From Cohnella abietis (GTDB lineage Bacteria > Bacillota > Bacilli > Paenibacillales > Paenibacillaceae), in contig NZ_AP019400.1 of NCBI RefSeq assembly GCF_004295585.1, forward strand, positions 6,750,501 through 6,814,500: DNA of 64,000 nucleotides, written 5' to 3'. The first letter of the stretch is position 1. Each line of letters opens with the position of its first letter. The notes below the pieces were generated by a model, which worked only from the letters and a program-made list of their open reading frames with translations, was not told the DNA's origin and did no database searches. Below, piece by piece: positions 1 through 21,212 of the stretch. The position numbers were made by a program, and so were the translations under genes.

Positions 1-323
1 AAGGCGACCAAGACGGTAGGCACTCCGAGGTTCATAATGGCAGTTGCAGCCGATGACGACGTGACGTACGTACTCAGATTACAGAATAAGAAGTCTACAT
101 CTTGGGCTCTCAGCCGAGCGGCCGCTGCGAACGATTTGTCCACGTTATCTACAAAACCCGCCGATACGATCTCCACGTCGTAGCCGCTAAGCATCTTCTC
201 GAACTCACGACCGTAACCCTCGAGTTCCTCCCGCAACCCCGGAAATTGTCCCCAATACGGCTCGTGACCAACCGTTATAACGCCAATGCGAGCTTTAGCC
301 CTTGTAAACAATGGTATACTCAT
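1..323 (-). CDS. Sugar isomerase, L-fucose/L-arabinose isomerase-like (N-terminal part, cut by window edge)
   Basis: The reading frame is open from an ATG at 323 to the window edge, about 107 codons, so only the N-terminus is visible. The protein begins MSIPLFTRAKARIGVITVGH and continues with a Rossmann-like strand, a YWGQFPGL segment and an FLFCNLSTYVTSS segment, typical of the N1 domain of fucose/arabinose isomerase-fold proteins that interconvert aldoses and ketoses. The start is supported by an AAAGGTGG ribosome binding site 9 to 10 bases upstream. It is the last visible gene of the minus-strand operon that begins at 12644 and follows the beta-mannosidase by 43 bases, so it probably acts on a sugar released by that system. 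The substrate cannot be told from this fragment, and catalytic metal ligands would lie outside the window. Confidence 0.7.
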   Translation of the reverse strand, partial: MSIPLFTRAKARIGVITVGHEPYWGQFPGLREELEGYGREFEKMLSGYDVEIVSAGFVDNVDKSFAAAARLRAQDVDFLFCNLSTYVTSSSAATAIMNLGVPTVLVA

Positions 324-366
324 TTCCACTTCCACCTTTTCGCGATTAGTGCTATTGATTGTCAAT

Positions 367-2934: not shown

Positions 2935-3025
2935 CGTCGTTGTCCCTTCTTTGGTTCGTGCCGCCAACCGGTAACGGTAACGGCTAAAGTTACGGTTGCT
3001 GTATCGTTAAAGCTACCACCAGCGC

Positions 3026-6000: not shown

Positions 6001-9000
6001 GCAGCGTAGGCGCATGCTCGAGCGTAAGCGGTTGACCGTCCTTATGGGCCGTGGCGCTGCCGACCGTCAAGTCGTATAGGGCACTTCCCTTCAAGGCGAT
6101 GAACTTCTGCGCCGCGGCGTCCCATTCGGATTTGACGCCCAACTGGAGCCAAATATCCTTAATGGGAACCATGACGACCCCATCTTGAACGAGAGGTGGC
6201 TGGCTTAACGTTCTCCGCTTGCCGTCCACATACAGCTTTATCTCCATAGAATCGTTCGCGACGGCGCGAATGTAATCGATGTCGACCGTTCCCAAGGCCG
6301 ATACCGGGTCGATCCGGATTTGCCGGATGTTGCCTACCCAGCTTTTGTTTCGCCACATCTCCACGTAATAATCGGTATACCCGTCGTCTTGCGGATTAAC
6401 GAAGAAACCCATCGCTTTCGTCTCGTTCCAATCCCCGTCGAGCTCCGTCGTGAAGAAAACTCTGCCTTCGATATCGTTGGCGTTATTCTTCATGCGGATC
6501 TTGAGATAGGGAGCATCCTCCGCTTTGATCCCAAGGTGGTCGCCGGAGACGATCCCCGGATCCGTGTTGTTGAAGACGGCCGTCAAGCTGCCTCCCGAGA
6601 CGCCAACGGAATCTACCTCCCTCAGCGCGGTCCACCCTTCCTCGTCGCCGGCGGTATTGAACTCCCACGACGCAACGAAGTTGTCCGACACGGCTGGCGG
6701 CGTCAAAGTTCGGTTAGGGACGACTCTGCCCGCCGGATACAGAACGCCGATTCTATCCTTCTGCGCCTGCGTCGGCACGATATCGTCGTGAGCTGCGGAG
6801 CCCGCGAAGACGTCGCGGATCGCGTCCACGTACCCGAATCCGGCCAGTCCGGCAGGCATGAGGAAGTGGCCTTCCCCGAATTCGTTCCAGTTGTCTAGCA
6901 TGACGAGCTTCTTGCCAAGGTTACCCGCGGACAACGAAGGGATATACGTATCCTTCGTCCACTGCGCGAGTGACTGGAATTCCGACGGCGACGCGTAATA
7001 CCCGAAGTGGAGTCCCCAAGCGGTGTCGTCCCGGCCCATACTCAATCCAGGGATAACATCCAGTTCCCCGAATCCGTTCTCCAACGTCAGCTTAAGCTTC
7101 TGATAATCCGGATGTCCGCCGAACGAACCCCACGAATAGGCGTACACCGCATCGAAGCCTGCTGATCTGCGATTGATTAGATCTTGAGCGTTCGTACCGT
7201 TGTACACGTTCAGAATGATCAGGTCATCAAATCCGACCGCAATCGCCGCGTTCCGCAGATAATCGATATCGGCCTTAGCTCCTGCGATGGAACCCGATAG
7301 TTTAACGAATTGATCGTAATGGTAGATCGTGAATACCGGCTTGTTGTCGATCTTCAAGTACCGGGGATCCTTGAAGTAATATTCGACCCAATAGGGGACC
7401 AGATTGTTACGGAAATCATTGCTGTCGGCCGCTTTGGAGTTCAAGTTCTCCCACATAATCGCGAAATCTACTTGATCGCTATACTCCGAATTGAAGTAAC
7501 CGTCGTGTAGGGCGGAAGACAGGAAGGGATCCTTGACCGGGGCGTTCTCGCCGCCGATCGGCCTGAACCAGCAGGAAATCTGGAAGCCGATGCCGTGCTC
7601 GGCCTGCCATTTGGTCTCCCAATCCGCCGTCTCCGGATTTCCTTCGTCGTAGAATCCGAGCAACGGCGTACGATCGGGATACGGATTGATCATATCCCAG
7701 CCCAAGTGATGACCTTCGCGCCACATCGGGCAGCTCTGAACGCCGACGAGCTTGTCTCCGGTGCTTACTTTTACTGGCGGCGGGACGTAGTCGGAGGGCA
7801 AAGGCGTATCCGCGAAAGCGAGAACGTCGTCCAGCCACATCGTGCCTTTGTCGGCGGCGGAAGTTGAGAAGCGGATGCCGTCCACGGAAGAGATACCAGA
7901 AGCCAGCACGACATTGTCCGCGCTCAGCTTGCCGTTAATATAAATGTCTGCCCGGGAAGAAGCCAATCTTAGCTTCACCTTGAGGCTGTACCATAGATTT
8001 TCCCGGTAATCGTATAGCTCGACCGAATTACCCGCCGTGTCGACGTAAGCCAGCTTCCCGTTCGTCGTGACCAGCTTTAACGCGGTTCCGGTCCCGCTTT
8101 TCAGTTCCGCGGCGAGTCCGTTCTTCTTGACGGGTACGTAAAATTTATACTCCGCGGTCACGTCTCCCGAGAGCGGAGCGAAGCTCTTCGACAGCCCCAT
8201 GGCTCCCGTGGCGTTCGCGGCGTCCATCTTAAAGCTGTAGATGTCCGGCTTGGGAGACATGACGTAATACCGGGTGCTCCCGTTTACTTGCTCGGACATC
8301 TGCTCGACCTTGATAGTGCCGCCCGACGGGCTCGACGTCCAATCCTGGGGCACGGCGCCGTTCGCGACCGATAGCAGCCTTTCGTTGACGGCATAGCCCT
8401 TATAAATTTTGAGAGGTGTGAAATAAAAATCCCCCGTAGAGGCTACCCCCGTCGTCAGTTCAAATCGATTCAATGCGTCGACCGAATTTTTGAAAGACTG
8501 CGCCGCAGCTTTCTTGACGCCGTTAATATACACGTCCGCCTTGCCGGCGGCCATGTCCGCGATTACTTTCACGCCGTATTCCGTGTTAGACGCGTAAGCC
8601 TGCAACGTAACCTTTCCTCCGCCGGACGTCTCCAGCACGAGATCGCTACCGCTCGTGGCGATGCTGACGCCCGCGGTATCTCCGTCGAGCAGTTGCCACT
8701 TCAGGCCATCTATAATCGTTAACGGCTTAAAGCGGTATTCCATCGTGATGGTACCCTCGGTCTGCTCGGGGAACTTACGGCTCATCGATACGGGAAGAAC
8801 CTGACTCGTATCGCTCACTTTCAGCGTATCCGCATACAGGCTGACGAGCGCGCCGCCGGCGGAGCGAACGTCCCAGCCGGAAGGCCGGCTCTCGCCGGGG
8901 ACCAGATTGGAGAAAAACGTGAAGTCCTCGTCCACTAGATAAGAGGTTCCCGCGGGAGCGCTTTCACTATCGGCGAGAACGGTACGGGAATAAACTACGA

Positions 9001-9064
9001 TCATAAATGCGCATAAAACCATCGAAATGCTTAAAACGGTCCATCCAAATTTGATCTTGAACAT
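3026..9064 (-). CDS. Giant secreted multidomain GH99-like glycosidase
   Basis: A 2012-aa exported protein. The ATG at 9064 has an AAGGGGAA ribosome binding site, and the start is followed by one hydrophobic signal segment (about 7-30). Two LamG/concanavalin-like beta-sandwich regions (about 35-225 and 235-425) precede a GH99/WbsX-like TIM barrel (about 437-755) with VGVQSCPMW, GFYDEGNP, NKPVFTIYHYD and DNWNEFGEGHF; the two Glu of NEFGEG near 728-731 are candidate catalytic residues. Next come a carbohydrate-binding-like module, a copper-amine-oxidase-N-like stalk domain (about 940-1055), three further CBM-like modules beginning NLVVDPGMEG or similar, two Big_2 Ig folds, an Ig fold of the OmpL47 type (GNEETA) and three C-terminal 75-aa repeats (LKDSAGNPLSGG, SYTFGMTY). 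GH99 members cleave endo-alpha-mannosidic bonds, fitting the downstream beta-mannosidase, but the substrate here is inferred. No SLH or LPXTG anchor was seen. Confidence 0.8.
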   Translation of the reverse strand: MFKIKFGWTVLSISMVLCAFMIVVYSRTVLADSESAPAGTSYLVDEDFTFFSNLVPGESRPSGWDVRSAGGALVSLYADTLKVSDTSQVLPVSMSRKFPEQTEGTITMEYRFKPLTIIDGLKWQLLDGDTAGVSIATSGSDLVLETSGGGKVTLQAYASNTEYGVKVIADMAAGKADVYINGVKKAAAQSFKNSVDALNRFELTTGVASTGDFYFTPLKIYKGYAVNERLLSVANGAVPQDWTSSPSGGTIKVEQMSEQVNGSTRYYVMSPKPDIYSFKMDAANATGAMGLSKSFAPLSGDVTAEYKFYVPVKKNGLAAELKSGTGTALKLVTTNGKLAYVDTAGNSVELYDYRENLWYSLKVKLRLASSRADIYINGKLSADNVVLASGISSVDGIRFSTSAADKGTMWLDDVLAFADTPLPSDYVPPPVKVSTGDKLVGVQSCPMWREGHHLGWDMINPYPDRTPLLGFYDEGNPETADWETKWQAEHGIGFQISCWFRPIGGENAPVKDPFLSSALHDGYFNSEYSDQVDFAIMWENLNSKAADSNDFRNNLVPYWVEYYFKDPRYLKIDNKPVFTIYHYDQFVKLSGSIAGAKADIDYLRNAAIAVGFDDLIILNVYNGTNAQDLINRRSAGFDAVYAYSWGSFGGHPDYQKLKLTLENGFGELDVIPGLSMGRDDTAWGLHFGYYASPSEFQSLAQWTKDTYIPSLSAGNLGKKLVMLDNWNEFGEGHFLMPAGLAGFGYVDAIRDVFAGSAAHDDIVPTQAQKDRIGVLYPAGRVVPNRTLTPPAVSDNFVASWEFNTAGDEEGWTALREVDSVGVSGGSLTAVFNNTDPGIVSGDHLGIKAEDAPYLKIRMKNNANDIEGRVFFTTELDGDWNETKAMGFFVNPQDDGYTDYYVEMWRNKSWVGNIRQIRIDPVSALGTVDIDYIRAVANDSMEIKLYVDGKRRTLSQPPLVQDGVVMVPIKDIWLQLGVKSEWDAAAQKFIALKGSALYDLTVGSATAHKDGQPLTLEHAPTLLANGTVLVPLSYVHDAFGATVSWDETVRKIEIYPAGKIWDFEFADGWTANGQIAGGAVLGGVFSGSSLGVSGGVAPAIESPDGLNLAASSVKRVRVKLRNETAGNEARVYYQTEGDSSWNEMKKLSSYILPNEPLFREYVFDATNAAGWTGTIRRIKVVPTLETGTFVIDSVHMDTAVALPIIGDNLVVDPGMEGNVIQAQTTNTVLGLDISQAHSGHQSLKVAKIGRYSSAMFKLNGVVPGQEYRYSVWAKLATAPTLTEPLRVGLQYRVDGTIKQLIIFTSAGLSNQSWTQVQGNYAIAETGTVTDVYLYVYTEVDANRHDYYVDDVEVRPISYSASPAWISATGLSMDAAATVYYGKTLTLVPTFQPATGVINKEVIWHSDNPAVATVDNNGIVYGKSTGTARVSAMSLDGGHTATTEVTVALRQGFPSNELLGSNLIVDSGMEGGAVPSAYYGSSATLTLNAAEHRNGAQSLRVTKTGNNRYGAVFLPTTIEKGKLYYYSAWGKLDAAPASPALLRICIQYKLDGVVQQKILFSSTALGYGGWVQAQGYYEIQDAGVVTDTRVYLYTEQLGDLQDFYVDDIEVREVSYGVTSITLNKSEITLPIGQSETLEATVLPGNATNKSVVWSSGNPAVATVDAGGTVTAVGEGVAVITATNPGGAAQSATVYVDATAPVTAAVFGPSSPDGPGGTYIGPVTLELTATDGVSGVQQVSYSRDNGTTWTPYTNALVFDKQGSYAVLYKSIDKAGNEETAQSASFALSATSTVVELKDSAGNPLSGGTVKYYDGAWKDLGTTDASGKATKSLPERSYVFSVTYQGVTKQATQHTASNATVVFQTVKANIWLKDSLGNDLSGGTAKAYVGGSWQTIGTTGSGELSKEVFAGSYTFGMTYEGVYNQQAWDVGEDPAVVFQTASILIQLKDAQGAPVDGGIAKVYSGGAWKTIGATANGEIRKELLPASYTFGMTYGTALANIQKDTATDQTVVFQLP

Positions 9065-9156
9065 ATCAATCGGATTCCCCTTCGCACCGGAATTATGAAC
9101 GTTTGAAAAAAACGGCGACCCCACTACTACGTAGCAGAGCCGTCGGATCGATCTGA

Positions 9157-10746
9157 TTAGCTATTAGCCGTTTTCCAAGCGTCGAATTGTTTTTGGGCTT
9201 CTGCCAGAATCTTGTCCATACCGGCATCGTCCAACCGTTTTTGCAGACCCGTGTAATATTTCTCGAAGTCGGGCATGGAACCCGTCGTCAGAATCGGATT
9301 CGCTTCCTTCTGAATAGCGCTCACTTGCGCGATCTCGTTCTTTACAGGCTCTGGATTAAAGATGAAGCCGAGAATTCCCGATGCTTTGCCGTTCTCGTTG
9401 TTCTTCCTCATTGCTTCCAGCGCGGCCGTGGAGTTCCAATTGGAATCCCATTGATCCCATAGAGGTCCAAGCCAGTTGTGCCAGATCGCCCACGTTTGTT
9501 CCGAGCCGCTCTTAGCTTCGATTGTCGGATTGCCGTCTTTCACCGTTCCGGATTTTACCGTGTAGTTCTTTCCTTCGACGCCATAAGCCAGCGTGTTCAA
9601 CAAGTACTTGTCGCCCCAGATCTCGTTGAGCAACATCATCGCTCTTTCCGGATTTTTGGACGTGGCGCTGATGGCCGAAGCGGCCGAAGTCATCGAATTC
9701 GTCGAGATGGTCGGATAACCGGACAACGTTTCTACCGTCGGGAACCCGTAAGTCGCGGTCGACTTCGAACCATCCTCGGTATAACCGCCGGAATCACGCA
9801 TGACGGCGTATTTGCCCGATTTGGCTTCGGCAAGGTAGTCCGTCTTGATGGCCGCATCCTTGGCGATGTAACCCTTCTTGTAGAAGTCGTTGATCGTTTG
9901 GTAGTTTGCCTTGTTCTGGGCGACGCCCAGAATCTTGACGATCTTGCCATCCTGCTCGCTATAAGAAATCCCCGGGGAAACCGTCGTATAGTCGTATAAG
10001 GTAACCCCAGAAGCCGTCCCATTTGCGGTAGCTAAAAGAGGAATCATATCGGGCTCGTTCTTCTTGATCTCGGCTAGGAAGGGTTCCAGATCCTGAATGC
10101 TCTTGACGCTCTTATAATCGAACTGATACTTCTCGACCATATCTTTCTTGAATACATGGGCGCCAGCCGGAGAGTACGGAGTCTGCGCCGGAATCGCCAT
10201 AATCTTCCCGTTGTAGGTCACTGCTTTCCACGCGCGGGGATCGACCTTGGCCAGAATGTTCTGTCCATACTTCTGAAGCAGTTCGTCCAGCGGCAATAAA
10301 GCGCCCTTCTGCACGTTATCGCTGATCCGATTAGTCGCGAAAGTCGAGAAAACCAGATCGTAAGGCTCGCCCGCTGCCGAAATCAGCTTCATTTTGTCTT
10401 CCCAGCCGGCATTGTCGATCAGATTGAGTTGTAATTCAGCATTCAACTTCTCCTTGATAATCTTGTTCGCTTCCGCCAATACCGCATCCTGATCCTTCAT
10501 GTTGTCGATCGGCTTCGGCATGTACCAGCTGAGCTTGACGAAATCCTTCGTTTCGCTACCTGAATCCTCCGGAGATGCGGTCTGCGAGGCTTGAGATGCC
10601 GGTTGCGACGACTCGGGGTTGCCACTCGGACTGGATGCTGCATTCTCCTTCGAATTACAACCGCTTACGATGAACATTGCTGCTAGCATTGCGGACGTTC
10701 CTGACAAGAGCCACTTCTTTGATGTTTTCGTCTTTACACGACTCAC
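9157..10746 (-). CDS. Extracellular sugar-binding lipoprotein (LplA-like, DUF3502 C-terminus)
   Basis: A 529-aa solute-binding protein of a carbohydrate ABC importer, anchored to the outer face of the membrane. The signal peptide ends in the lipobox VSGC (about residues 27-30), followed by a Ser/Gln-rich linker. The start is a GTG at 10746 with a GGGAGG ribosome binding site. The C-terminal GFIFNPEPVKNEIAQV segment is the hallmark of the DUF3502 subgroup found with LplB/LplC-type permeases in Paenibacillaceae. It lies 75 bases after the second permease gene and 92 bases before the GH99-like gene, so it probably captures oligosaccharides released by that enzyme. The exact ligand is not readable. 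Confidence 0.88.
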   Translation of the reverse strand: MSRVKTKTSKKWLLSGTSAMLAAMFIVSGCNSKENAASSPSGNPESSQPASQASQTASPEDSGSETKDFVKLSWYMPKPIDNMKDQDAVLAEANKIIKEKLNAELQLNLIDNAGWEDKMKLISAAGEPYDLVFSTFATNRISDNVQKGALLPLDELLQKYGQNILAKVDPRAWKAVTYNGKIMAIPAQTPYSPAGAHVFKKDMVEKYQFDYKSVKSIQDLEPFLAEIKKNEPDMIPLLATANGTASGVTLYDYTTVSPGISYSEQDGKIVKILGVAQNKANYQTINDFYKKGYIAKDAAIKTDYLAEAKSGKYAVMRDSGGYTEDGSKSTATYGFPTVETLSGYPTISTNSMTSAASAISATSKNPERAMMLLNEIWGDKYLLNTLAYGVEGKNYTVKSGTVKDGNPTIEAKSGSEQTWAIWHNWLGPLWDQWDSNWNSTAALEAMRKNNENGKASGILGFIFNPEPVKNEIAQVSAIQKEANPILTTGSMPDFEKYYTGLQKRLDDAGMDKILAEAQKQFDAWKTANS

Positions 10747-10821: not shown

Positions 10822-11730
10822 TCATCCTTTAACAGAGCCAACCGTCAAGCCTTGTACGAAATATTTTTGAAACAGTGGGAATACGAGCAGCATAGGACCC
10901 GCGGCAAGAATGCACATCGCCATTCGCGCGCTGAGGGAAGGCACGAGCATTCCTGGCTTGACCAGTCCGTATTCGATGGCTTCCGCCGAATTCAAGTACT
11001 CCATGTTCTTCAAGACGCGGATGAGCAAGTATTGCAGCTTCATCAGGTTGTCGTGTTCGACGTAGAGCAAGGTTAGCCACCAGTCGTTCCAATATTGAAG
11101 GGCGAAGAACAGGCCCAACGTCGCGAGCGCCGGTTTGGAAATCGGAAGGACGATCTGCGCGAAAATTCTCAGTTCGCCCGCTCCGTCGATTTTGGCGGAT
11201 TCGATGACCGCTTCCGGAATCGTCTGCAGGAACCCCTTCATCAGCATGACGAACCATCCGCTAATTAGATAAGGCAAGATAAGCGCTAGCGCGGTGTTCT
11301 TCAATCCCAGCCACTTAACCATCAGAATATAAGAGGGAACCATCCCTCCGTGGAAAAGCATCGTGAAGAAAATGAAGAAGGCGAGGAACGACCGGAAGCG
11401 GTAATCCTTGCGTGAGATGGCATACGCATAGGAAGTCGTCACCCACATTCCGACGATCGATCCGACGACGGTCGTCGCTATTGTCACGAAATAGGATTGA
11501 AGCAACGTCTGCGGACTGTGCAGGATAACCCGGTAGGCATCCCAGGTGAAATTCTTCGGGATTATGGAATACCCGAATCTCACAATATCGTTCTCGCTCT
11601 GAAAGGAAGTTCCGATAATGACCAGGAACGGAAATACGCAGACCGCGCAAAGAGCGATGAAGATAAAGTGGATAATCAGCTTCCCGACGGGCAGCGGTCT
11701 TCTTGCGAGTGACGTCGAGTAATCTTTCAT
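10822..11730 (-). CDS. Carbohydrate ABC transporter permease (LplC/YtcP type)
   Basis: A 302-aa inner-membrane permease with about six membrane segments. The binding-protein-dependent transport signature is clear: ESAKIDGAGELRIFAQIVLP, the EAA loop that docks the ATPase, followed by FFALQYWNDWW. The start ATG at 11730 has an AAGGGG ribosome binding site. It ends with the usual GLTVGSVKG tail of the MalG-like half. It is 11 bases downstream of its partner permease gene, and together with the lipoprotein at 9157-10746 it forms an importer without a dedicated ATPase. Confidence 0.92.
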   Translation of the reverse strand: MKDYSTSLARRPLPVGKLIIHFIFIALCAVCVFPFLVIIGTSFQSENDIVRFGYSIIPKNFTWDAYRVILHSPQTLLQSYFVTIATTVVGSIVGMWVTTSYAYAISRKDYRFRSFLAFFIFFTMLFHGGMVPSYILMVKWLGLKNTALALILPYLISGWFVMLMKGFLQTIPEAVIESAKIDGAGELRIFAQIVLPISKPALATLGLFFALQYWNDWWLTLLYVEHDNLMKLQYLLIRVLKNMEYLNSAEAIEYGLVKPGMLVPSLSARMAMCILAAGPMLLVFPLFQKYFVQGLTVGSVKG

Positions 11731-11741
11731 GGTTTGGCCCC

Positions 11742-12644
11742 TTAGAAGAGAGAGTTTTCCGGATTTATTTTCTTGACGATGGTATTCGTAACGAGAACCA
11801 GGCAGAATCCGACGATCGATTGGAAGAACCCCGCCGCCGATGCCATCCCGATATCGCCCAAATCGATCAGCGAGCGGTAGACGAACGTGTCGATAACATC
11901 CGTTGTGCTATAAAGCAACGACGAGTTCAGCGTTACGTTGTAGAACAGTCCGAAGTCGCTGTAGCAGATGCTGCCGATCTGCAGGATGACTAGCATGATA
12001 ATGATCGGCTTGATCATCGGCACTGAAATGGAGAACGCCTGCCGGATCTTGCTAGCTCCGTCGATCTTAGCTGCATCGTAATATTCCGAGTCGATGCCCA
12101 TCAGCGCCGCGTAATAGATAACGGAGCTGTAACCGAGACCTTTCCATACCGCCGCTATCACGATAATGTAAGGCCAGTATTTCGGATCGCTGTACCACAG
12201 GATCGGCTCTTCGCCCAAGGAGACCAGGAAGCGATTGATGACGCCGTATTCCATATCGAACAACGAGCGAAACGCGAATCCGGCCACGACCCAAGAGATG
12301 AAATAAGGAATGAACAGAATCGTTTGATACGCTCTCACGAATCGCCGGCTCAACTCGTACAGAAGCAATGCGACCACCACCGAGAGCGTCGTGCCGAGTA
12401 CGATAAAGGTCATGTTGTAGAGAATCGTATTCCGCAATACCCGATAGAGCACGTCTCCGTTAAAGAGGAAACCGAAGTTGTCGAACCCGACCCAAGGGCT
12501 GTTCCATATCCCCAAGTTGTACCGGTATGACTTGAAGGGCAGCAGCAACCCGTAGAGCGGTAAATAATTGAAAACAATGATGAGCAGAAATCCCGGCAGC
12601 GCCAACATCGACAGCCCCGCGTTCTTTTTCATAATCCTGATCAT
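11742..12644 (-). CDS. Carbohydrate ABC transporter permease (LplB/YteP type)
   Basis: A 300-aa inner-membrane permease, the MalF-like half of the pair. The N-terminus has LPGFLLIIVFNYLPLYGLLLPFK, as in LplB proteins. The EAA loop reads YDAAKIDGASKIRQAF. The C-terminus KKINPENSLF is the standard tail of this group. The ATG at 12644 is preceded by AAAAGGAAG about 13 bases away; an internal ATG at 12632 is possible. It is the first gene of the operon running down to position 1. A promoter should lie between here and the terminator at 12778; a weak TTGAAG/AATATA pair on the minus strand near 12710-12740 is the best candidate seen. Confidence 0.92.
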   Translation of the reverse strand: MIRIMKKNAGLSMLALPGFLLIIVFNYLPLYGLLLPFKSYRYNLGIWNSPWVGFDNFGFLFNGDVLYRVLRNTILYNMTFIVLGTTLSVVVALLLYELSRRFVRAYQTILFIPYFISWVVAGFAFRSLFDMEYGVINRFLVSLGEEPILWYSDPKYWPYIIVIAAVWKGLGYSSVIYYAALMGIDSEYYDAAKIDGASKIRQAFSISVPMIKPIIIMLVILQIGSICYSDFGLFYNVTLNSSLLYSTTDVIDTFVYRSLIDLGDIGMASAAGFFQSIVGFCLVLVTNTIVKKINPENSLF

Positions 12645-12844: not shown

Positions 12845-15181
12845 TTAATTAATCTTGTTTACGTTCCTTTGCAGGGCATATTCCTTCGGCGTTACCTTGT
12901 ACTTCTTCTTGAACAGGCTGAAGAAGTAGGTTTCGTTCGTAAACCCAACCTTCTGAACGACCTCGTAGACGCTCAGATCCTCTTGGATAAGAAGCTCCGC
13001 GGCTTTGGTCAGCCGCACCCCGTTGATCATATCCGGGATCGACAGATTCGTCGCCTCCTTGTAAATTTTGCTCAGGCTCCGGGAAGAAATCTTCATCATG
13101 GATGCGATCGAAGGCATGCTTAAGGATAAGTCCTGATAATTATTATGAATATATTCCGTTACCGCGTCTACGACGAAAGAGTTGAGCGTATCCGTATTCT
13201 CGGCCGGTTCCTTGTTAATAGAATCCTGAAGTCCGCCCCTTATGATCCGATGGATCTCGGCCATCGTCTCCTTCTCAAGAATGCGGCGGCCAATAGAGGC
13301 GATCTGGAGCGAAGGCGCAGCGGGTATTTTCGCATCTTCCAACGCTTCGATCGCCGTATTGACCAGTCTAATGATCGAGACCAAGGCATTGTGATAATTC
13401 AGCGTCTCCATTTCCCCGAACAGATTCGCAAGCACTTCCTTCATGGCGGCGACATTGCCCGACTTGATCGTCTCCACTAGCCATTCTTCCAATTCCTTCG
13501 AATAACCAGATTTTTTACTTTCGGCGTTTTTGCGAATGCGCGCGTACGTAATGATGGAGCCATGCCCGAGATGCAGCCGATACATGGCTTGATCTAACGT
13601 CTGATTGTATAGAGAATGCAACCCGCTAAGCGTATCTGTCTTGTCGCTGATCGAAGCCGTGAAAGTAACTTTGAAAAATCGGGAGAAGTTTTCCTGCGCC
13701 TCGGTAAGTAGAGTAACAAGCTCCGAGGGATAAGCGCCGTCTTGCTCCGGAAGACTCACGATCAGCAGCACATGATCCTCCTTCATATCGATTCCTTCGT
13801 TCGGATACGTTCGGGCTACGATCTCTGAGGCGATGTTGAGCAGCGCGAACCGGAACATCTCCTTATCCTTGGCGCTGAAGGCTTGCTGGAACTCCTTATA
13901 ATTATCGATTTTCAACATACATACCGCATACGAAGCCTCCGGAGACAAAGAAATTCGCATCTCTTTGAATAAAACCAGAAGCTCGTCCCTAGAAATCGTA
14001 AAGCGCTCGTCGAGCAGCCGACTCAGCCAATAATGCCTCATCACGTCCTTGTTGTCGTGCTTCTCCTTATAGAACAGTTCGAGCTCTTCCATCGATTGCC
14101 GATAGACGTTATTCAAATACGAGATCTCGTCGATGACTTCGTTCTCCCCCGCTCCGCGAGGTCTATCTCGCCTGATCGCATTCACGAGGTTGCCGAACGG
14201 CCGATAAATCCTGCGGGAGATCAGAATCGAGATGAAGAATGCCAGAATCAAGGCAATCAGCGTGATGACAATAATACTGGTTCGTAGACTCGCGATATAT
14301 CGATACACTTCGAGGATGGGCTGCGTCTTCAGCAACGTCATCCCGGCGCTCTCGACGCTCGAATAGGTGACTAAATAGGGGGTTCCGCCGTGCTTGCTTT
14401 CAAAAAATCCGTCAGCGCCCGCATCCTGATGGGTAGCCTTATAGTCCGCTAGATCGGACTTCAACCACTGCATCATCCCATTGTCACTCGTTCCGTCGGC
14501 CAAATACTCACCGGATTGGTCCAAGAGGAAGATATTGTCGCCTTTGCGCTTGTCGATCATATTAATCAGCCGGATGTTGTCGAGCAACCACTCCGACCTG
14601 ACGTTGATGACGATAACGCCTTCGGGCTTCAGACCGTCCGTCGAAGTTTCGTACATCATATAAGAAAACACATGCTCGGGCTTCGACTCTCTGTTCACCA
14701 ACTTCCCGATGTTGCGGAAGATCGGCTTCATCTTCGGCGGTAGCTGTTCCGAATGGTACATAGTATCTAGTAACTGATCTTCGAAGAACACGGGACTTCC
14801 CGCATTGTAAGTCTGGTCCAAGTTCCGGTTGTAGATCGTTATGGAATGAATGTACGGATTAGTCGAAGTTATTGAGCTCGTTACTTTATTCAAGCGAGTG
14901 GCCACGTCGACCATATTCTCCTGCGTTGCATACATCACTGCGCCTACGTCGCTGTTCAAATAGAGAGATTTGCACAAGCTGCTGATCGTATCGTCCATGA
15001 ACGCCATATTGTATTTCACTTGGAAAAGGATTTTCTGATTGGAGGCATACTCATTCTTCACCAGTAGTTTCTGGGTGTTGATATAGACGACCGCCGACAG
15101 CGCGGTGATGATGAGCAGGATTGCGATGCTGATCCAGAGTACCATCTTGGCATAGTAAGCTTTGATCCCGAATCGCTTCAT
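12845..15181 (-). CDS. Membrane-bound AraC-family transcriptional regulator
   Basis: A 778-aa one-component sensor/regulator. A first membrane segment (about 12-34) is followed by a roughly 260-aa extracellular sensor of the Cache type, then a second membrane segment (about 300-320, SIIVITLIALILAFFISILI), a linker, and a C-terminal AraC/HTH_18 DNA-binding domain (MPSIASMMKISSRSLSKIYK ... VGFTNETYFFSLFKKKYKVTPKEY). Such proteins sense extracellular sugars and activate a neighbouring importer operon, so the operon starting at 12644 is the likely target. The start is the ATG at 15181, with GGAGGAGG eight bases upstream; a TTG 18 bases earlier lies inside that ribosome binding site and is unlikely. 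It has its own downstream terminator. Confidence 0.9.
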   Translation of the reverse strand: MKRFGIKAYYAKMVLWISIAILLIITALSAVVYINTQKLLVKNEYASNQKILFQVKYNMAFMDDTISSLCKSLYLNSDVGAVMYATQENMVDVATRLNKVTSSITSTNPYIHSITIYNRNLDQTYNAGSPVFFEDQLLDTMYHSEQLPPKMKPIFRNIGKLVNRESKPEHVFSYMMYETSTDGLKPEGVIVINVRSEWLLDNIRLINMIDKRKGDNIFLLDQSGEYLADGTSDNGMMQWLKSDLADYKATHQDAGADGFFESKHGGTPYLVTYSSVESAGMTLLKTQPILEVYRYIASLRTSIIVITLIALILAFFISILISRRIYRPFGNLVNAIRRDRPRGAGENEVIDEISYLNNVYRQSMEELELFYKEKHDNKDVMRHYWLSRLLDERFTISRDELLVLFKEMRISLSPEASYAVCMLKIDNYKEFQQAFSAKDKEMFRFALLNIASEIVARTYPNEGIDMKEDHVLLIVSLPEQDGAYPSELVTLLTEAQENFSRFFKVTFTASISDKTDTLSGLHSLYNQTLDQAMYRLHLGHGSIITYARIRKNAESKKSGYSKELEEWLVETIKSGNVAAMKEVLANLFGEMETLNYHNALVSIIRLVNTAIEALEDAKIPAAPSLQIASIGRRILEKETMAEIHRIIRGGLQDSINKEPAENTDTLNSFVVDAVTEYIHNNYQDLSLSMPSIASMMKISSRSLSKIYKEATNLSIPDMINGVRLTKAAELLIQEDLSVYEVVQKVGFTNETYFFSLFKKKYKVTPKEYALQRNVNKIN

Positions 15182-15252
15182 TCGGTTGTCCTCCTCCAAT
15201 TCGTCGCGGCGTTAGCTAGAAGCTTCCGCCGCCTTGTATGCACAATGCCGAA

Positions 15253-15284: not shown

Positions 15285-16082
15285 TTATTCCGATATGGCC
15301 TCCAACTGATCGGCCAGCGCGTGCAGGTTGTCCAAGCTGATCCTCACGCTGTCGAGCGCTTCGCCCTCGCAAATATCTTGTTCCACGACATACCATTCCA
15401 CGCCGTTCCTCTCTCCCCATAGGAGCAGGGGCTCGAAGTCGATTATTCCCGTACCGATCTCGGCATAGGTCCTGCGCTCGTCGCCAGTCATATCCTTCAA
15501 GTGCATCGTAGGCATTCGGCCGCTGTAGGGCGTTAGGAATACCACAGGATCATAGCCTGCTTTTTTTACCCAGTATACATCAATTTCCGCCAGCACGGCA
15601 TTATCCAACACCGGTTCTATAAGATAACTCAGAGCATCCCTGCCGCGAACGCTCGTATCGAACTCGAAGGCATGGTTGTGGAATGCGACCGTGAAGCCCT
15701 CGGACCTCAACTCGGCAGCCGCCGCGTTCAGTTCCTCCCGCAACCTTACGTAGCCTTGCTCGTTGCGCCATTCATGAGGCACAGACGGACAGATCAGACG
15801 ATTTGTGCCTAGTAGTCTCGCTTCGGCCATGACGCCCTCCGTATCTGATCGCAATCGTTCTACCGAGACATGCATGCCTGCCGTTTTCAGCCCGGTCTCC
15901 CTCAGCACTTCGGCAATCTCCTCCGGGGCATGGCCATGAAGGCCAGCCGTTTCCACCCCGGCCCATCCCATGCGGCCAAGCGTTCTCAGCGTTGCGGGAA
16001 AATCACTCTCGCATTCCTTGCGTAGCGTATATAATTGAACGGCGAATTTGTGCTTCAATTCGACTCCCCCTCGGTTCACCAT
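15285..16082 (-). CDS. Sugar phosphate isomerase/epimerase (xylose isomerase-like TIM barrel)
   Basis: A TIM-barrel protein of up to 265 aa of the AP_endonuc_2 superfamily. Visible features are FAVQLYTLRKECESDFPATL, GWAGVETAGLHG, a metal-binding-like VAFHNHAFEF segment, EIDVYWVKKAG and MHLKDM. Members isomerise or epimerise sugars or inositol derivatives using a divalent metal. The ATG at 16082 overlaps the stop of the upstream gene by seven bases; a TTG at 16061 has a better GAGGGGGAG ribosome binding site and would give MKHKFAVQLY, so the true start is uncertain by seven codons. It is the last gene of the four-gene unit that starts at 20748. Confidence 0.83.
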   Translation of the reverse strand: MVNRGGVELKHKFAVQLYTLRKECESDFPATLRTLGRMGWAGVETAGLHGHAPEEIAEVLRETGLKTAGMHVSVERLRSDTEGVMAEARLLGTNRLICPSVPHEWRNEQGYVRLREELNAAAAELRSEGFTVAFHNHAFEFDTSVRGRDALSYLIEPVLDNAVLAEIDVYWVKKAGYDPVVFLTPYSGRMPTMHLKDMTGDERRTYAEIGTGIIDFEPLLLWGERNGVEWYVVEQDICEGEALDSVRISLDNLHALADQLEAISE

Positions 16083-18532
16083 GTGACTTCCATCTCTCCG
16101 CTAATATTCGAGATGACCAACCTGTCGCCGAATACGCAATCTTCCAAATTGAGATATACATTATCGGCTCTTACTTCTACTTCTCCCGCGATCAAGCTGG
16201 CTAACGGCGGGTAGATCGTGACCTTTGCCTCGCGCAGACCGGTAACGTGGATGAACCGTACCGTAACTTTCCTAGGCGTAGGATTCGGCATGTATTCCCG
16301 GCAGAAGACGGTTGTCGTCTCCCGCTGATCGACGAAGACGCGGCACTCGTCGTGGAACGTCCGATCCAACGAATAGGCGGCTTCGCCTTGTCCTGCTCTG
16401 ATCGTCTGACCGGCGATCACCGGAACCCCGTCGGGAAAGCGCATGCTCAAGGCAACCGAAGTATCCTGCCGCCCTCCCGTGAAGTAAAAGCCGTTGTCGT
16501 GTCGAGAGACGAACAGAAGAGCCGGCTTATTCGTTTCTTCATGCTTGATCTGGTTCAGCTCGTATCCGAATTCAGCGAGCAACAGCCGGACTAGAATCGA
16601 GATGTCCGAATAGGCATCCGGTTGCCGTACGGGCAGCTGCGTCACTTCCCCGCCTTCGAATGGCAGTGACCCCCGCACCCAGCCGACTTTGCCGCCGTTC
16701 CACTCCGGCAATTCCCTTGTCAAAGCAAGGATTCGAACTTGATTATCCCGACTCGCTGTCGCACATACTTTCGTGGCCCAATCGTCTGCATCGGCTAGAA
16801 TCTCATTCAGCACGCCCCCTCCAATCAGCGGATCGTGCTTGAATATCCTGGAGGCAGCGGCATCGCCGCGGATCGTGTCCGGCTGTAACGTGGAAGCAAG
16901 CTCCAATTCTCCCTCAAGACCGCTATCCTGCCGGATGTTGAGCAGTTCTTGCCACTGCGGATCGGTAACCGCCCCGTAGATAATCGCCCTGCCGCCTTCC
17001 CGCACGAAGGCTTCCAGAAGCCGCGCATTCGCTCCTATTAATCCGGAAGCCGGAACGAATAAGATCGTTTCCCGCAGCTTGCCCTTACCTTCCCCCGTCA
17101 TTGCCGCGAACTCATCCGTGCTCAGTACGGTATTCAGAGGCAAACCCTGATTGACCGCATTACGCACGAACCACTCTTCGAAGAAAATCGTGTTCGCTTC
17201 GTTCTCCGATGCCGCGACAGCCTCGTGATATTCCTTGAACGGATACAACCAGGTCAGAATGCCCGCTTGATCGGGGAAGTCTTGAATCGCTCTGCGCAGG
17301 TGGGGGATAATCTCCGCCGGACAATCCGGGTTCAACTCACCCTTCTCCGTATCGATCGTCAACAGCTCGATGATTCCCGGGTTTTCAAGCTCACCTTCGC
17401 CGTTCATCCGGGCGACGGTCAACGGACAATAGATGTCGTGCGGCTCCCGATCGTAGAGATCCCACCAAGGATTCTGCCAGAACCATGGGTCGTTCGGATA
17501 GAAGCGATAAGGGTACGTCTCTCCGGGCAGAACCGCGATTCTGGACATGTGCGAGGCGATCTCCAGACCGAAGTCGAAGTTGAGGGCACCCCATGGCGAA
17601 TTCGGCGGCGGAAACTCGATGTATTTTCTCCGGTACAGCTCCGCAAGCGGAATGAAATCTTTGGCGATATCCATTCCCGTCCCGAAGTTGGTGCCGCGCA
17701 CCTCCGTACGGTACCCTGGGCATTCCCGTTTGAAATGCTCCCAGAATGACAACGTTTTGCCCGTCAGCTCTTCGTAATTCGCCAGCGGCATTGAGGTTCC
17801 GTCGTAATTCGCTCCCAAGTACGTCCAAGGAAAATACGAGAAACCGAAGCCGTTCGAGAACCAAATATAATCGAAGCCGAGCTCCGGCAGGAAACTGGCG
17901 CATTGTCGTCCCAGAAATTCTCCGAAAGGCGTGCCTTCGGATATGCCATCCGGATAAGCCGCATAAGCGGTCTGATCCCCGTTCAACTTGGACCATGTGC
18001 AGATCACGGTGTAATCCGCCTTCAGCGCGACTTCTTTGCCGCCCAGCTCCGCATGGTTGATCTCCAGATGATGCTTGTATTTAAAATCCGAATAAGCGAA
18101 TTCTGGGCCGGCGTCGAACGTCGCACCGACTTCCATCCGGATACTGAATTTCTCTTCGGCGATCCGCTTAAACGCGGCTACGATGAACCGGAGGTCAGCG
18201 TAGGTGATCGAACACGCATCGGACCGATAAAGCTTGGCTACGCGTGGATCGTTCTTATCGGTATGTCCGAATTTATCCTCGTTCGCGAAGCCGATATAGC
18301 GTCCCCATTCGATCTCGCGCTCCCAGTTTCCGTCCCAGACGAGAATCTCGCTGCCGTCGGCCACCCATAGGAGCATCGAGCAACCGTCGGCCATGCCGAT
18401 CAGCGGCATCCATTGCCGAATCGCCTCCTCGCATACCGCTTCGATGGCGGATGGTTCCATACTCGTAAAAGGCTTCAAACTCATTTCCAGCGTTACTCGA
18501 TTTAGTCGCTTACTCGATTTTGCTCGTCCCAT
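16076..18532 (-). CDS. Large protein of unrecognised family, possibly a glycoside hydrolase
   Basis: An 818-aa protein without signal peptide or membrane segment. I do not recognise the family. It starts with RVTLEMSLKPF and has a long aromatic-rich first half (GFDYIWFSNGFGFSYFPW, PNDPWFWQNPWWDLYDREP) resembling a sugar-acting TIM barrel, with acidic residues in GNWEREIEWG and NFDFGLEIASH. A middle segment (about 490-580: RETILFVPASGLIGANARLL, REGGRAIIYGAV) looks like a class I glutamine-amidotransferase fold, and the end is beta-rich. This order resembles GH42 beta-galactosidases, which is an inference only. The ATG at 18532 has AGAAGGGACGACGGG upstream and overlaps the SGNH gene by 31 bases; a longer upstream frame is not supported. 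The neighbours (esterase, dehydrogenase, epimerase) suggest carbohydrate breakdown. Confidence 0.6.
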   Translation of the reverse strand: MGRAKSSKRLNRVTLEMSLKPFTSMEPSAIEAVCEEAIRQWMPLIGMADGCSMLLWVADGSEILVWDGNWEREIEWGRYIGFANEDKFGHTDKNDPRVAKLYRSDACSITYADLRFIVAAFKRIAEEKFSIRMEVGATFDAGPEFAYSDFKYKHHLEINHAELGGKEVALKADYTVICTWSKLNGDQTAYAAYPDGISEGTPFGEFLGRQCASFLPELGFDYIWFSNGFGFSYFPWTYLGANYDGTSMPLANYEELTGKTLSFWEHFKRECPGYRTEVRGTNFGTGMDIAKDFIPLAELYRRKYIEFPPPNSPWGALNFDFGLEIASHMSRIAVLPGETYPYRFYPNDPWFWQNPWWDLYDREPHDIYCPLTVARMNGEGELENPGIIELLTIDTEKGELNPDCPAEIIPHLRRAIQDFPDQAGILTWLYPFKEYHEAVAASENEANTIFFEEWFVRNAVNQGLPLNTVLSTDEFAAMTGEGKGKLRETILFVPASGLIGANARLLEAFVREGGRAIIYGAVTDPQWQELLNIRQDSGLEGELELASTLQPDTIRGDAAASRIFKHDPLIGGGVLNEILADADDWATKVCATASRDNQVRILALTRELPEWNGGKVGWVRGSLPFEGGEVTQLPVRQPDAYSDISILVRLLLAEFGYELNQIKHEETNKPALLFVSRHDNGFYFTGGRQDTSVALSMRFPDGVPVIAGQTIRAGQGEAAYSLDRTFHDECRVFVDQRETTTVFCREYMPNPTPRKVTVRFIHVTGLREAKVTIYPPLASLIAGEVEVRADNVYLNLEDCVFGDRLVISNISGEMEVTW

Positions 18533-19665
18533 TTCCCGTCGTCCCTTCTCGTTCGTTGTTCGATGACGGCATTCAGCAGTTCGGCAATGACGGGCCGAAG
18601 CGTCGTCGCTATGCGGGCATAGCCCAGATCGGATGGGTGTATGCCGTCCGTCGTGCAATCTTGGGGATCCTCGCCCAGCAGCAACGCGCCGTCGAAGAAA
18701 TGAACGTTGAGATCTCCCGCGGCTCGTTGCCGATCAACCTCTTCCCGCTGAATCCGCTTGCGCTCCTCCCTGCGAGAAACCAGTTCTCCGTCGAATGCCT
18801 CTCTCGCCAAACGTATTTGCGATAGCACTAGAATCGGAACGTCGGGATGACGATCGCGGTAGATCCGGATAAATTCGGGCAACGACTCGCGGAGTCGCTC
18901 TGTACTCGGCGTATTGGCTTCATAATCCAGAATCAGCAATCCGGGCGCCTCGATCTGACTGATCAAATGGGCGAGCTCCGGCTCCCCTTGCGCGTTGCCG
19001 GAGAATCCTAGATTCACGAATTCCAGCGGAAACATTCGGCTTAGAATGTTGGGGTAAGCCATGCCTGGCCTTGTCGCGCATGCACCGTGCGTAATCGAAG
19101 TTCCGTAGAGGAGTACCTTCTTATCGACGGGGAAACCCGGGAAAGCCGCGATCTCCGAAGAGGGAGCGACGCCGATGTGCAGTTCTGCTACTCCTTGATA
19201 TAAGGGAAGATTCAACGTAATTTCGCGCATCTCCCGCGTAAGCGAATCGAACAGTACGGATTCATACTCCTCTTGGGTAAAGTCGAACCGAGAAGTATTG
19301 ATATACTTCTGGTTTCCGATCGCACCGATATAACAATCCACGCCACATTGGCCGGTAGCCGCCATCTGATACATGCTATATTTGTCCGCTAGCTTCACCC
19401 GCACGTATAGATTTGGGGAATCCGTCCGAAAACGGACTTGCACGCCGGTCGTATTATTCGCCAATCGATCCACTTCTGGCCGAATCTCATGGCTAGGATG
19501 TACGGGCAACCTACGGTAGACGCCATCCCGATCCAGCCACGGCAAGCCCGTCACGCGAAACGGCGCTTCGAGCGCCGACACCCATTTCAAGTCCGACTCC
19601 GAATTTCCGCCTATCTTCAAGTTTGGGTCTGCTTGATTCTCGTCTTTGCGATCCACTCCGCTCAT
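18502..19665 (-). CDS. SGNH/GDSL-type esterase with N-terminal beta domain
   Basis: A 387-aa hydrolase. The N-terminal part (about 30-175) is beta-rich and carries CGVDCY, close to the GxDLY motif of the domain that precedes SGNH hydrolases of this group. The catalytic part follows: LLYGTSITHG (Ser190), LGFSGNA (Gly220, Asn224) and DGIHPSD (Asp340, His343) supply the Ser-Gly-Asn-His set. Such enzymes remove acyl (often acetyl) groups from sugars. No signal peptide is seen, so it probably acts inside the cell on imported oligosaccharides. The ATG at 19665 has AGGGGAG upstream and is 12 bases from the previous stop. Confidence 0.85.
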   Translation of the reverse strand: MSGVDRKDENQADPNLKIGGNSESDLKWVSALEAPFRVTGLPWLDRDGVYRRLPVHPSHEIRPEVDRLANNTTGVQVRFRTDSPNLYVRVKLADKYSMYQMAATGQCGVDCYIGAIGNQKYINTSRFDFTQEEYESVLFDSLTREMREITLNLPLYQGVAELHIGVAPSSEIAAFPGFPVDKKVLLYGTSITHGACATRPGMAYPNILSRMFPLEFVNLGFSGNAQGEPELAHLISQIEAPGLLILDYEANTPSTERLRESLPEFIRIYRDRHPDVPILVLSQIRLAREAFDGELVSRREERKRIQREEVDRQRAAGDLNVHFFDGALLLGEDPQDCTTDGIHPSDLGYARIATTLRPVIAELLNAVIEQRTRRDDGKWDEQNRVSD

Positions 19666-19677
19666 TCTATCACTCCC

Positions 19678-20748
19678 CTACTTGATGGCATCCATCATCA
19701 TGCTGAATATAGCGAGATCCTGCAGGTAATCTTCCGGCGTCGTCTTGGGACGCATTCCGGTTGCGGCTACTTGATGAAAATACTCGAGCTCGCACGTATA
19801 AGCGTCCTTGTAAGTCGGGCGTATGACCGTCTCCTCCAAGGCATCCCCGATTGTCTCCCTAATCCGCAGAGTTGTCGGCAATTGCCGCAAGTATGGCGTA
19901 TCGTATTGAACGAGAACCGATTTGCGCTCCCCGTACACCTCGATATGAGCATCAAAACGTCCTTGCTGATCTACGCCGGTCTCGAAGACGGCGTTATAAC
20001 CATCGAACTCCAGAATCGCGGTTTTGAATCTACCGCCGTGCGAGGAAGCGACCGCCTTCACGCTTTTGGGTACTCCGAGCATCTCCCGCATCGCGGAGAT
20101 GTCATGGCTGTTCAAGCCTAACAACAGGCCGTACGCGTCATAAGTCTCGGGGGCCTGATCGCCGATGGCTTCCCTCATGAGACGGGCATTCCTCGTCTTG
20201 CGATCCTGGACGGCTTCAGCCGGGATATCGTCGAATCGGTATACGCGGGTACCCGATTGGCCTGTGAAGTAAGCGTTCGGACCGATAATGTCCCGCACCC
20301 GCGCATAATTGATCGGCCCCATCGTCCGGACTTCTTCCAGTGCACGAAGATAAGCTGGCGCGAACCGCCTCATATAGCCGACCATCACTTGGGAGTTAGA
20401 GGCATCTCGCGCTCCGATAATCGCACGGGCTTCCTCTTCGGTCACGCACATCGGCTTCTCGACGAATACGTGAATGTTTCTTTGCAATGCCGCCACTGTA
20501 CAATCGGTATGGTATTCCATATTATTCAGTACGAAAACGGCATCCAGCTCGGACTGCTCGAGCATCTCCGTGACGTTCGAATACAGGTTCGTGACCCGGT
20601 ACTTCTCTCCCATCTTCGCAAGCAGCTTTGGTGAAATATCGCAGAACGCAACCATCTCGTAAAGCTCCGGCAGCGATTCTAGAATGGGCAAATGGATGAT
20701 CTGGGCAACCTCTCCTACACCGATAACGCCGACTTTCAACTTCTTCAT
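19678..20748 (-). CDS. Gfo/Idh/MocA-family NAD(P)-dependent sugar oxidoreductase
   Basis: A 356-aa dehydrogenase. The N-terminal Rossmann motif is VGVIGVGEVAQIIHLP, and the family signature HVFVEKPMCVTEEEA is present near residue 90. The C-terminal alpha/beta domain follows. These enzymes oxidise, reduce or epimerise sugars and inositols. The frame is open 37 codons further upstream, but the ATG at 20748 has AGGGGAGACAAAG directly before it. It is the first gene of a unit with the SGNH esterase (12 bases away), the unknown 818-aa protein and the epimerase. Confidence 0.9.
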   Translation of the reverse strand: MKKLKVGVIGVGEVAQIIHLPILESLPELYEMVAFCDISPKLLAKMGEKYRVTNLYSNVTEMLEQSELDAVFVLNNMEYHTDCTVAALQRNIHVFVEKPMCVTEEEARAIIGARDASNSQVMVGYMRRFAPAYLRALEEVRTMGPINYARVRDIIGPNAYFTGQSGTRVYRFDDIPAEAVQDRKTRNARLMREAIGDQAPETYDAYGLLLGLNSHDISAMREMLGVPKSVKAVASSHGGRFKTAILEFDGYNAVFETGVDQQGRFDAHIEVYGERKSVLVQYDTPYLRQLPTTLRIRETIGDALEETVIRPTYKDAYTCELEYFHQVAATGMRPKTTPEDYLQDLAIFSMMMDAIK

Positions 20749-20918
20749 CTTTGTCTCCCCTTTAATCGCTTTCCTTCGAGCACGACGCGCTAATCGGTAA
20801 CGCCGAGCATCGTCTCGCAACTTAAATCTACGTGTCGCATCCGGCCGTGTACACTTCAAATTATGTAGATTTCTTCGATAATTGGCTTCCCGATATAGAA
20901 TTTAGGGCTAATGCAAGA
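20749..20918. other. Intergenic leader of the dehydrogenase operon
   Basis: This stretch lies between the dehydrogenase start and the 3' end of the intron remnant. It must hold the promoter of the minus-strand operon starting at 20748, but no convincing -35/-10 pair was found and no ORF with a ribosome binding site is visible. Confidence 0.4.
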
Positions 20919-21139
20919 ATCGAGTAGGCCCATGCGCAATTGCATGGGCCTCTCACAGATCCGACATGCGGGTCGACTCATCCGGCTCCTCCAGTGATTA
21001 TCCCCTTTGGGGATGAAGTTCTCTTTAAATCTCAAGCAGACTATGATGGACACCCTTGCTCTTGGCTAGTGGTTGGCAACTACAAACCCCCCAAGTGGAC
21101 TTTCACCACCTAGTTAATCGCCATGCATGCACGCCACAC
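20919..21139 (-). mobile_element. ORF-less group II (IIC-like) intron remnant, 221 nt
   Basis: Read on the minus strand, the element starts GTGTGGCG (consensus GUGYG), continues with GGTGGTGAAAGTCCAC, then TAGTTGCCAACC..ACTAGCC and AGCAAGGGTGTCC, which match the start of domain I of bacterial group IIC introns. About 90 bases in, this is joined through an unrelated-looking stretch to GAGCCGGATGAG..CATGTCGGATC, a degenerate domain V that keeps the AGC triad. It ends in domain VI, GAGAGGCCCATGC / GCATGGGCCTACTC, with an unpaired A at 20925, seven bases from the 3' end CGAT. The reverse transcriptase and most of domains I-IV are missing, so it cannot move on its own. It starts a few bases after the terminator at 21142-21172, the kind of target class C introns use. 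Confidence 0.75.
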
Positions 21140-21141
21140 TT

Positions 21142-21172
21142 AAAAGAGGCAAACCAATTGGTTTGCCCCTCC
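21142..21172 (-). terminator. Intrinsic terminator of the SLH-protein gene
   Basis: A perfect 20-base palindrome GGCAAACCAATTGGTTTGCC at 21148-21167, flanked by GAG/CTC, is followed on the minus strand by TCTTTTAAG. It lies about 40 bases after the stop at 21213. Confidence 0.8.
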
Positions 21173-21212
21173 TACGAATAGAATATTTGGATTTGGACGG
21201 TGTCTGCTATGA

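What the first reader, a model, noticed from the sequence alone, without database searches (positions are those of the whole stretch)
16076..18532. 818-aa protein of no recognised family inside an esterase-dehydrogenase-epimerase operon
The protein has a barrel-like aromatic-rich first half and an amidotransferase-like middle segment reminiscent of GH42, but none of the family motifs I know. Tight coupling (7- and 31-base overlaps) with an SGNH esterase, a Gfo/Idh/MocA dehydrogenase and a TIM-barrel epimerase suggests a dedicated pathway for an acylated or otherwise modified sugar. This is the best candidate for an undescribed enzyme in the window.
Basis: inference. Interest (0 to 1): 0.6.

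Follow-up and report, generated by a model that had tools for sequence, protein, structure and literature searches.

The report
Unclassified sugar-cleaving enzyme paired with isomerase
This soil-bacterium gene belongs to a real but unnamed protein family that looks like a three-part sugar-cutting enzyme, nearly always travels with one particular sugar isomerase, and lacks the catalytic residue its look-alikes use, so it is a good candidate for a new glycosidase family.

Summary
The 818-aa protein (FAM) is real, on the minus strand (18532 to 16076), with exactly the overlaps stated. Nothing in Pfam, NCBIfam or PDB sequences matches it. It founds a coherent family: relatives in Cohnella, Paenibacillus, Clostridia MAGs and Microbacteriaceae, plus remote actinobacterial cousins. 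AlphaFold2 (pLDDT 86) gives a (beta/alpha)8 barrel, a GH42/GlmA-like Rossmann-type domain and a beta-sandwich, closest to GH42, GH164, GH35-type and GH151 enzymes. Sequence homology to GH42 is absent, and the end of barrel strand 4 (SNGFGF) has no conserved carboxylate, unlike both GH-A and GH29/GH151 enzymes.

Context is the strongest clue. Among 295 Paenibacillaceae genomes, an L-arabinose/L-fucose-isomerase-like protein occurs in 20 of the 21 that have FAM and in none without it, usually as the adjacent gene. In the window it sits at the far end of the same 22-kb minus-strand cluster. Actinobacterial loci lack it and instead carry a lactonase/dehydratase/diketo-hydrolase set of L-rhamnose/L-fucose type.

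Best reading: a cytosolic exo-glycosidase of an undescribed family that frees an L-fucose- or L-rhamnose-like aldose from imported, probably acylated, oligosaccharides. Activity, substrate and catalytic residues are unproven.

The parts
16076..18532 (-). FAM: 818-aa protein of undescribed family; barrel (about 1-475), GH42M/GlmA-like Rossmann-type domain, beta-sandwich
18502..19665 (-). SGNH esterase (GxDLY + Lipase_GDSL_3), no obvious signal peptide; overlaps FAM by 31 bases
   Evidence: PF14606 5.6e-41, PF14607 8.1e-35
15285..16082 (-). AP_endonuc_2 (xylose isomerase-like TIM barrel) protein; overlaps FAM by 7 bases
   Evidence: PF01261 1.1e-12
19678..20859 (-). Gfo/Idh/MocA oxidoreductase (true start probably the MKKLK codon near 20748)
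12845..15199 (-). membrane sensor/AraC-type regulator
   Evidence: HTH_18 2.6e-17
11742..12644 (-). ABC sugar permease
   Evidence: position and sequence; conserved next to FAM in relatives
10822..11730 (-). ABC sugar permease
   Evidence: PF00528 7.6e-12
9157..10746 (-). lipoprotein-type ABC solute-binding protein (DUF3502)
   Evidence: PF12010 3.8e-21
3026..9124 (-). 2032-aa putatively secreted protein with WbsX (GH99-like) domain, CBM_4_9, Big_2 and Cu_amine_oxidN1 domains
367..2967 (-). GH2 enzyme with beta-mannosidase-like domain set
   Evidence: PF22666 1.8e-49, PF17753 5.1e-9
1..365 (-). 5' part of the FucI/AraA-like isomerase gene; it continues outside the window to genome position about 6749369

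Best explanation
FAM is a cytosolic exo-glycosidase of a family not described in the libraries searched. Proposed order of steps: the secreted WbsX/GH99-like protein cuts a polysaccharide; the ABC importer takes up the oligosaccharide; the SGNH enzyme removes acyl groups; FAM (and GH2) removes terminal residues and frees an aldose; the aldose goes to the FucI/AraA-like isomerase (Bacillota) or to a dehydrogenase-lactonase-dehydratase-diketo-hydrolase route (Actinobacteria). The aldose is most likely L-fucose- or L-rhamnose-like. The barrel strand ends carry invariant carboxylates (E16, D59, D140, E144, D348, D394) and a Trp on strand 8 (W428), as expected of a sugar-binding active site; the usual carboxylate after strand 4 is missing, so the catalytic pair must sit elsewhere. 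Shown: conservation, predicted fold, partner co-occurrence, gene context. Inferred: catalysis, substrate, order of steps.
For: Predicted whole-length architecture matches GH42/GH164/GH35/GH151 enzymes; 10 of 28 members weakly hit the GlmA second domain; isomerase co-occurs in 20 of 21 FAM genomes and 0 of 274 others, usually adjacent, either side, sometimes with ATGA overlap; its metal-site residues align with L-arabinose isomerase 7cx7; actinobacterial loci carry an alternative route for a free aldose; invariant carboxylates at strand ends.
Against: No activity shown. No superposition of the active site was possible. The strand-4 carboxylate of the look-alike families is absent. One isomerase-less genome (G182) has no recognised alternative route near FAM among the ORFs read. 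The pathway enzymes in Actinobacteria all score below curated cut-offs, so the sugar is not fixed.
Confidence: 0.55

Rival explanations
1. FAM cleaves a sugar chain by another chemistry: a hydrolase or lyase for 3-keto-glycosides made by the Gfo/Idh/MocA dehydrogenase, with the AP_endonuc_2 protein as helper. A general acid on strand 4 would then not be needed.
For: Gfo/Idh/MocA and AP_endonuc_2 genes flank FAM in the closest group and reappear in Actinobacteria; strand-4 carboxylate missing; the dehydrogenase has weak matches to NCBIfam glycoside 3-dehydrogenase models.
Against: Many loci (for example L017-L019, L029-L031, L035) show no Gfo/Idh/MocA or AP_endonuc_2 gene like the window's within the flanks, while the isomerase is there.
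Confidence: 0.15
2. FAM already belongs to a recent CAZy family that Pfam and NCBIfam do not cover.
For: CAZy could not be searched here; some CAZy families are small, for example GH151 with 203 members in 2022 (PMC10154630).
Against: No PDB relative by single sequence or 28-sequence profile; two paper searches aimed at new families found no description.
Confidence: 0.2
3. FAM is a non-catalytic relative of glycosidases, for example a sugar sensor or a scaffold for the isomerase.
For: The strand-4 catalytic position is Gly in all 36 members compared; tight coupling to the isomerase.
Against: Many invariant carboxylates and aromatic residues line the strand ends, which is unusual for a decayed enzyme; actinobacterial members persist without the isomerase.
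Confidence: 0.1

Closest known systems
GH42 beta-galactosidases (5e9a, 3tts) and GH164 beta-mannosidase Bs164 (6t5o)
   Same: Predicted three-domain layout: barrel, Rossmann-type trimerisation domain, beta-sandwich; Foldseek E 2e-14 to 1e-12
   Different: 8-10% identity, TM about 0.35-0.45; no Pfam GH42 match; hhalign not significant; no Glu after the strand-4 Asn
GH35-type enzymes with a GlmA-like second domain: I. album beta-1,2-glucosyltransferase (7x87) and archaeal exo-beta-D-glucosaminidase (8oug, 5gsm)
   Same: Aligned over about 550 residues, Z 14-16; 10 of 28 members weakly hit GLMA_2nd
   Different: 7-9% identity; the window protein itself has no GLMA_2nd match; different catalytic-site pattern
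GH151 alpha-L-fucosidase ALfuk2 of Paenibacillus thiaminolyticus (6tvk)
   Same: Whole-length alignment, 546 residues, Z 14.5; barrel plus Rossmann plus C-terminal domain (PMC10154630); the context also points to an L-fucose-like sugar
   Different: 7% identity; strand-4 nucleophile Asp154 of ALfuk2 corresponds by strand order to Asn227 here
L-arabinose/L-fucose isomerase superfamily and sulfoquinovose isomerase SftI (for the partner protein)
   Same: Arabinose_Iso_C over cut-off; metal-site residues align with 7cx7
   Different: Three to four copies tested score 58-68 bits against a cut-off of 622 (AraA) and 47-64 against 700 (SftI): a separate subfamily of unknown substrate

Membership tests
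GH42 (Pfam PF02449) | Match to the family's sequence profile | tested here: not met
   No PF02449 match for FAM or any of 28 members at E<=1; hhalign with GH42 proteins probability about 1%
GH42 / GH164 (clan GH-A) | Three-domain layout: barrel, trimerisation domain, beta-sandwich | tested here: met
   Predicted structure and Foldseek matches; layout described in PMC7105311
Clan GH-A (GH42, GH164, GH35, GH5) | Acid/base Glu directly after an Asn at the end of barrel strand 4 | tested here: not met
   N227-G228 in all 36 members; no conserved carboxylate from 222 to 262. Strand numbering comes from the predicted structure, not from superposition
Clan GH-A | Nucleophile Glu at the end of strand 7 | tested here: inconclusive
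   Invariant Asp394 at that place by strand order, Glu or Gln in remote cousins; role untested
GH151 (and GH29) | Nucleophile Asp at the end of strand 4 | tested here: not met
   Asn227 in all 36 members, Asp only in three remote cousins; GH151 residues from PMC10154630
GH151 | Acid/base Glu at the end of strand 6 | tested here: inconclusive
   Invariant Asp348 near the end of strand 6; no superposition possible
GH151 | Alpha-L-fucosidase activity | not testable with these tools
   Needs an assay
Any CAZy family | Assignment by CAZy/dbCAN models | not tested
   No CAZy library on hand
L-arabinose isomerase (partner protein) | NCBIfam equivalog score above cut-off (622 bits) | tested here: not met
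   58-68 bits
L-arabinose/L-fucose isomerase superfamily (partner protein) | C-terminal isomerase domain and conserved metal-site residues | tested here: met
   PF11762 5.9e-9 to 2e-11, over cut-off; Glu, Glu, His, His align with 7cx7 (which residues bind metal is from general knowledge)

The most novel reading that the evidence does not exclude
Founding family of a new glycoside hydrolase group: a GH42-shaped enzyme without the strand-4 catalytic carboxylate, which cleaves with a different pair of carboxylates (strands 1, 3, 6 or 7), working with a new aldose isomerase subfamily in an undescribed pathway for an acylated 6-deoxy-sugar glycan.
Probability: 0.3. Interest if true: 0.65.

Novelty: new variant of a known kind. 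Interest (0 to 1): 0.5.

Why it matters
It gives a testable pair: an unclassified three-domain glycosidase-like family and an uncharacterised isomerase subfamily that co-occur almost without exception, with an oxidative route in the isomerase's place in another phylum. Assaying the isomerase would name the sugar and so predict what the glycosidase releases. If FAM is active, it would show how a GH42-shaped enzyme works without the strand-4 carboxylate.

Tried and rejected
GH42 membership by sequence: rejected. Spread by phages or plasmids: no match in phage records, no relative in viral contigs, one remote match in a Nonomuraea record of 11.9 Mb filed as a plasmid. Barrel alone, refolded (pLDDT 78): Foldseek lists GH5_18, ene-reductases, amylases and dextranases at E 5e-5 to 1e-3, and VIA-align gives GH5_18, Cwp19, GH151, GH20, GH66 and others at nearly tied Z of 12-15.6, so the barrel by itself does not pick a clan; GH164 is not in those rows, which proves nothing. 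Prediction that the one isomerase-less Paenibacillaceae genome (G182 = L028) carries the oxidative route near FAM: not borne out in the ORFs read about 20 kb either side, not exhaustively scanned; its Amidohydro_2 neighbour has no lactonase match. Residue-level superposition of the model on GH42/GH151 was impossible because model coordinates are not released. A literature search on 3-keto-glycoside cleavage found nothing.

Full report
WHAT IS THERE. The reading frame is on the minus strand, 18532 to 16076, 818 aa, without stops. The overlaps of 7 and 31 bases with the flanking genes are exact. The window lies in a 7.06-Mb single-contig genome at 6750501-6814500; same-genus genomes include Cohnella assemblies, recognisable by matching contig lengths, so the host is Cohnella or very close.

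NO KNOWN FAMILY BY SEQUENCE. Pfam, NCBIfam and the PDB give nothing for the single protein, and a 28-sequence profile gives nothing meaningful in the PDB. Ten of 28 family members, but not the window protein, weakly hit the GLMA-like second domain (best 3.5e-5). Alignment with GH42 proteins has no significance.

A REAL FAMILY. The species-level scan found 39 loci, from 87% identity in Cohnella to 37-40% in Microbacteriaceae. In Paenibacillaceae 21 of 295 genomes have it. In a phylum-wide draw it appeared in 3 of 398, one being the window's own genome and one a short weak fragment, so it is patchy. Remote cousins exist in Nonomuraea (hhalign E 1e-15) and as three tandem genes in another actinobacterium. 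The N-terminus begins straight at the first barrel strand, with no signal-peptide-like stretch (inspection), so the protein is probably cytosolic.

FOLD. AlphaFold2 with the family alignment gives mean pLDDT 86 and pTM 0.89. Foldseek's best matches are GH42 beta-galactosidases (2.4e-14), the Ignavibacterium beta-1,2-glucosyltransferase, GH164 beta-mannosidase and a GH42-like trimeric GH5 mannosidase; the Ignavibacterium enzyme is a GH35 protein (PMC8861115, abstract). The second aligner adds Cwp19, GH5_18, GH151 fucosidase and GlmA, all within about 3 Z units. The long alignments are those to three-domain enzymes (GH42, GH35/GlmA, GH151). The barrel alone does not single out a clan.

CATALYTIC RESIDUES. 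By DSSP on the model the eight barrel strands are 10-18, 48-56, 133-139, 222-225, 275-278, 341-344, 387-390 and 426-430. In GH164, as in clan GH-A, strand 4 ends in Asn159-Glu160 and strand 7 carries nucleophile Glu297 (PMC7105311). Here strand 4 ends in Ser-Asn-Gly-Phe-Gly, with no conserved carboxylate from 222 to 262, and strand 7 ends near Asp394. In GH151 the strand-4 nucleophile is Asp154 and the strand-6 acid/base is Glu235 (PMC10154630); here those ends hold Asn227 and Asp348. Invariant carboxylates at strand ends are E16, D59, D140, E144, D348 and D394. Which two act, if any, is unknown; this is inference from strand order, because coordinates could not be superposed.

THE CONSTANT PARTNER. 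In most loci outside the closest group the gene just before FAM (just after it in L030, L031, L033) encodes a protein of about 480 aa of the L-arabinose/L-fucose isomerase superfamily, in some cases with an ATGA stop/start overlap, for example L009, L011, L013. It aligns with L-arabinose isomerase 7cx7 at the Glu, Glu, His, His residues of the metal site (that these are the metal ligands is general knowledge). In the window genome the 84%-identical orthologue opens at window base 365, one base after the GH2 gene ends, and runs out of the window. Across the same 295 genomes, orthologues (49% identity or more, with a clear gap above a 40-44% paralogue group) occur in 20 genomes, all with FAM; FAM without it occurs in one, G182. 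Fisher p is 4e-30, to be read with caution because the genomes are related. Paenibacillus genomes whose FAM copy lacks the neighbour (L022, L023, L024) have it elsewhere; the three actinobacterial genomes tested and L028's genome (G182) do not.

THE ALTERNATIVE ROUTE. In Herbiconiux (L038) and Leifsonia (L040) FAM sits among an enolase-superfamily dehydratase closest to L-rhamnonate dehydratase, an amidohydrolase closest to L-fucono-1,5-lactonase, a FAH-family protein closest to 2,4-didehydro-3-deoxy-L-rhamnonate hydrolase, a zinc alcohol dehydrogenase, an SGNH hydrolase, an AP_endonuc_2 protein, a Gfo/Idh/MocA protein and a GH42 (not every gene was checked in both loci). All score below curated cut-offs, so they give the type of pathway and not the exact sugar. 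Two unrelated ways to use a free aldose beside the same protein argue that the protein supplies that aldose.

THE WINDOW CLUSTER. All genes from 20859 down to the window start point the same way: oxidoreductase, SGNH esterase, FAM, AP_endonuc_2 protein, AraC-type membrane regulator, two permeases, binding protein, a 2032-aa putatively secreted WbsX/CBM protein, GH2, isomerase. The order from oxidoreductase to binding protein is kept in close relatives such as L002, L003, L004, L006, L008 and L012.

VERDICT. A genuine glycosidase-like family, undescribed as far as these libraries show, with a strong functional partner. It is known in kind (three-domain glycosidase architecture) and differs in the catalytic-site pattern. 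Activity is untested.

Noticed in passing
window 20860-21212, minus strand (hit at 20919-20990): The gap upstream of the oxidoreductase reads like a decayed group II intron: Rfam Intron_gpII matches at 21.2 bits, below its gathering score of 40. No reverse transcriptase ORF there.
   Followed up: partly
window 21213-24242, minus strand: 1009-aa protein with repeated DUF5018/cadherin-like modules and three SLH domains: probable S-layer-anchored surface protein.
   Followed up: no
L083 3782-4313 (genome C1 about 6748781-6749312): Just past the isomerase's 3' end lies an array of near-identical repeats, giving translations such as RNIRTTPLNRASSGPRCSKYSNNTT. Nature unknown.
   Followed up: no
L016 and L032, 5770-10457: Two Cohnella assemblies share frameshifts at the same points in the SGNH gene and FAM. 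Could be shared sequencing errors or true decay.
   Followed up: no
L082 2834-9385: Three tandem remote relatives of FAM (about 650-750 aa each) in an actinobacterium, with Asp instead of Asn at the strand-4 end; none has a Pfam match.
   Followed up: partly
window 3026-9124, minus strand: A 2032-aa protein combines a WbsX (GH99-like) domain with CBM_4_9, Big_2 and Cu_amine_oxidN1 domains; possibly the secreted enzyme that feeds the pathway.
   Followed up: no
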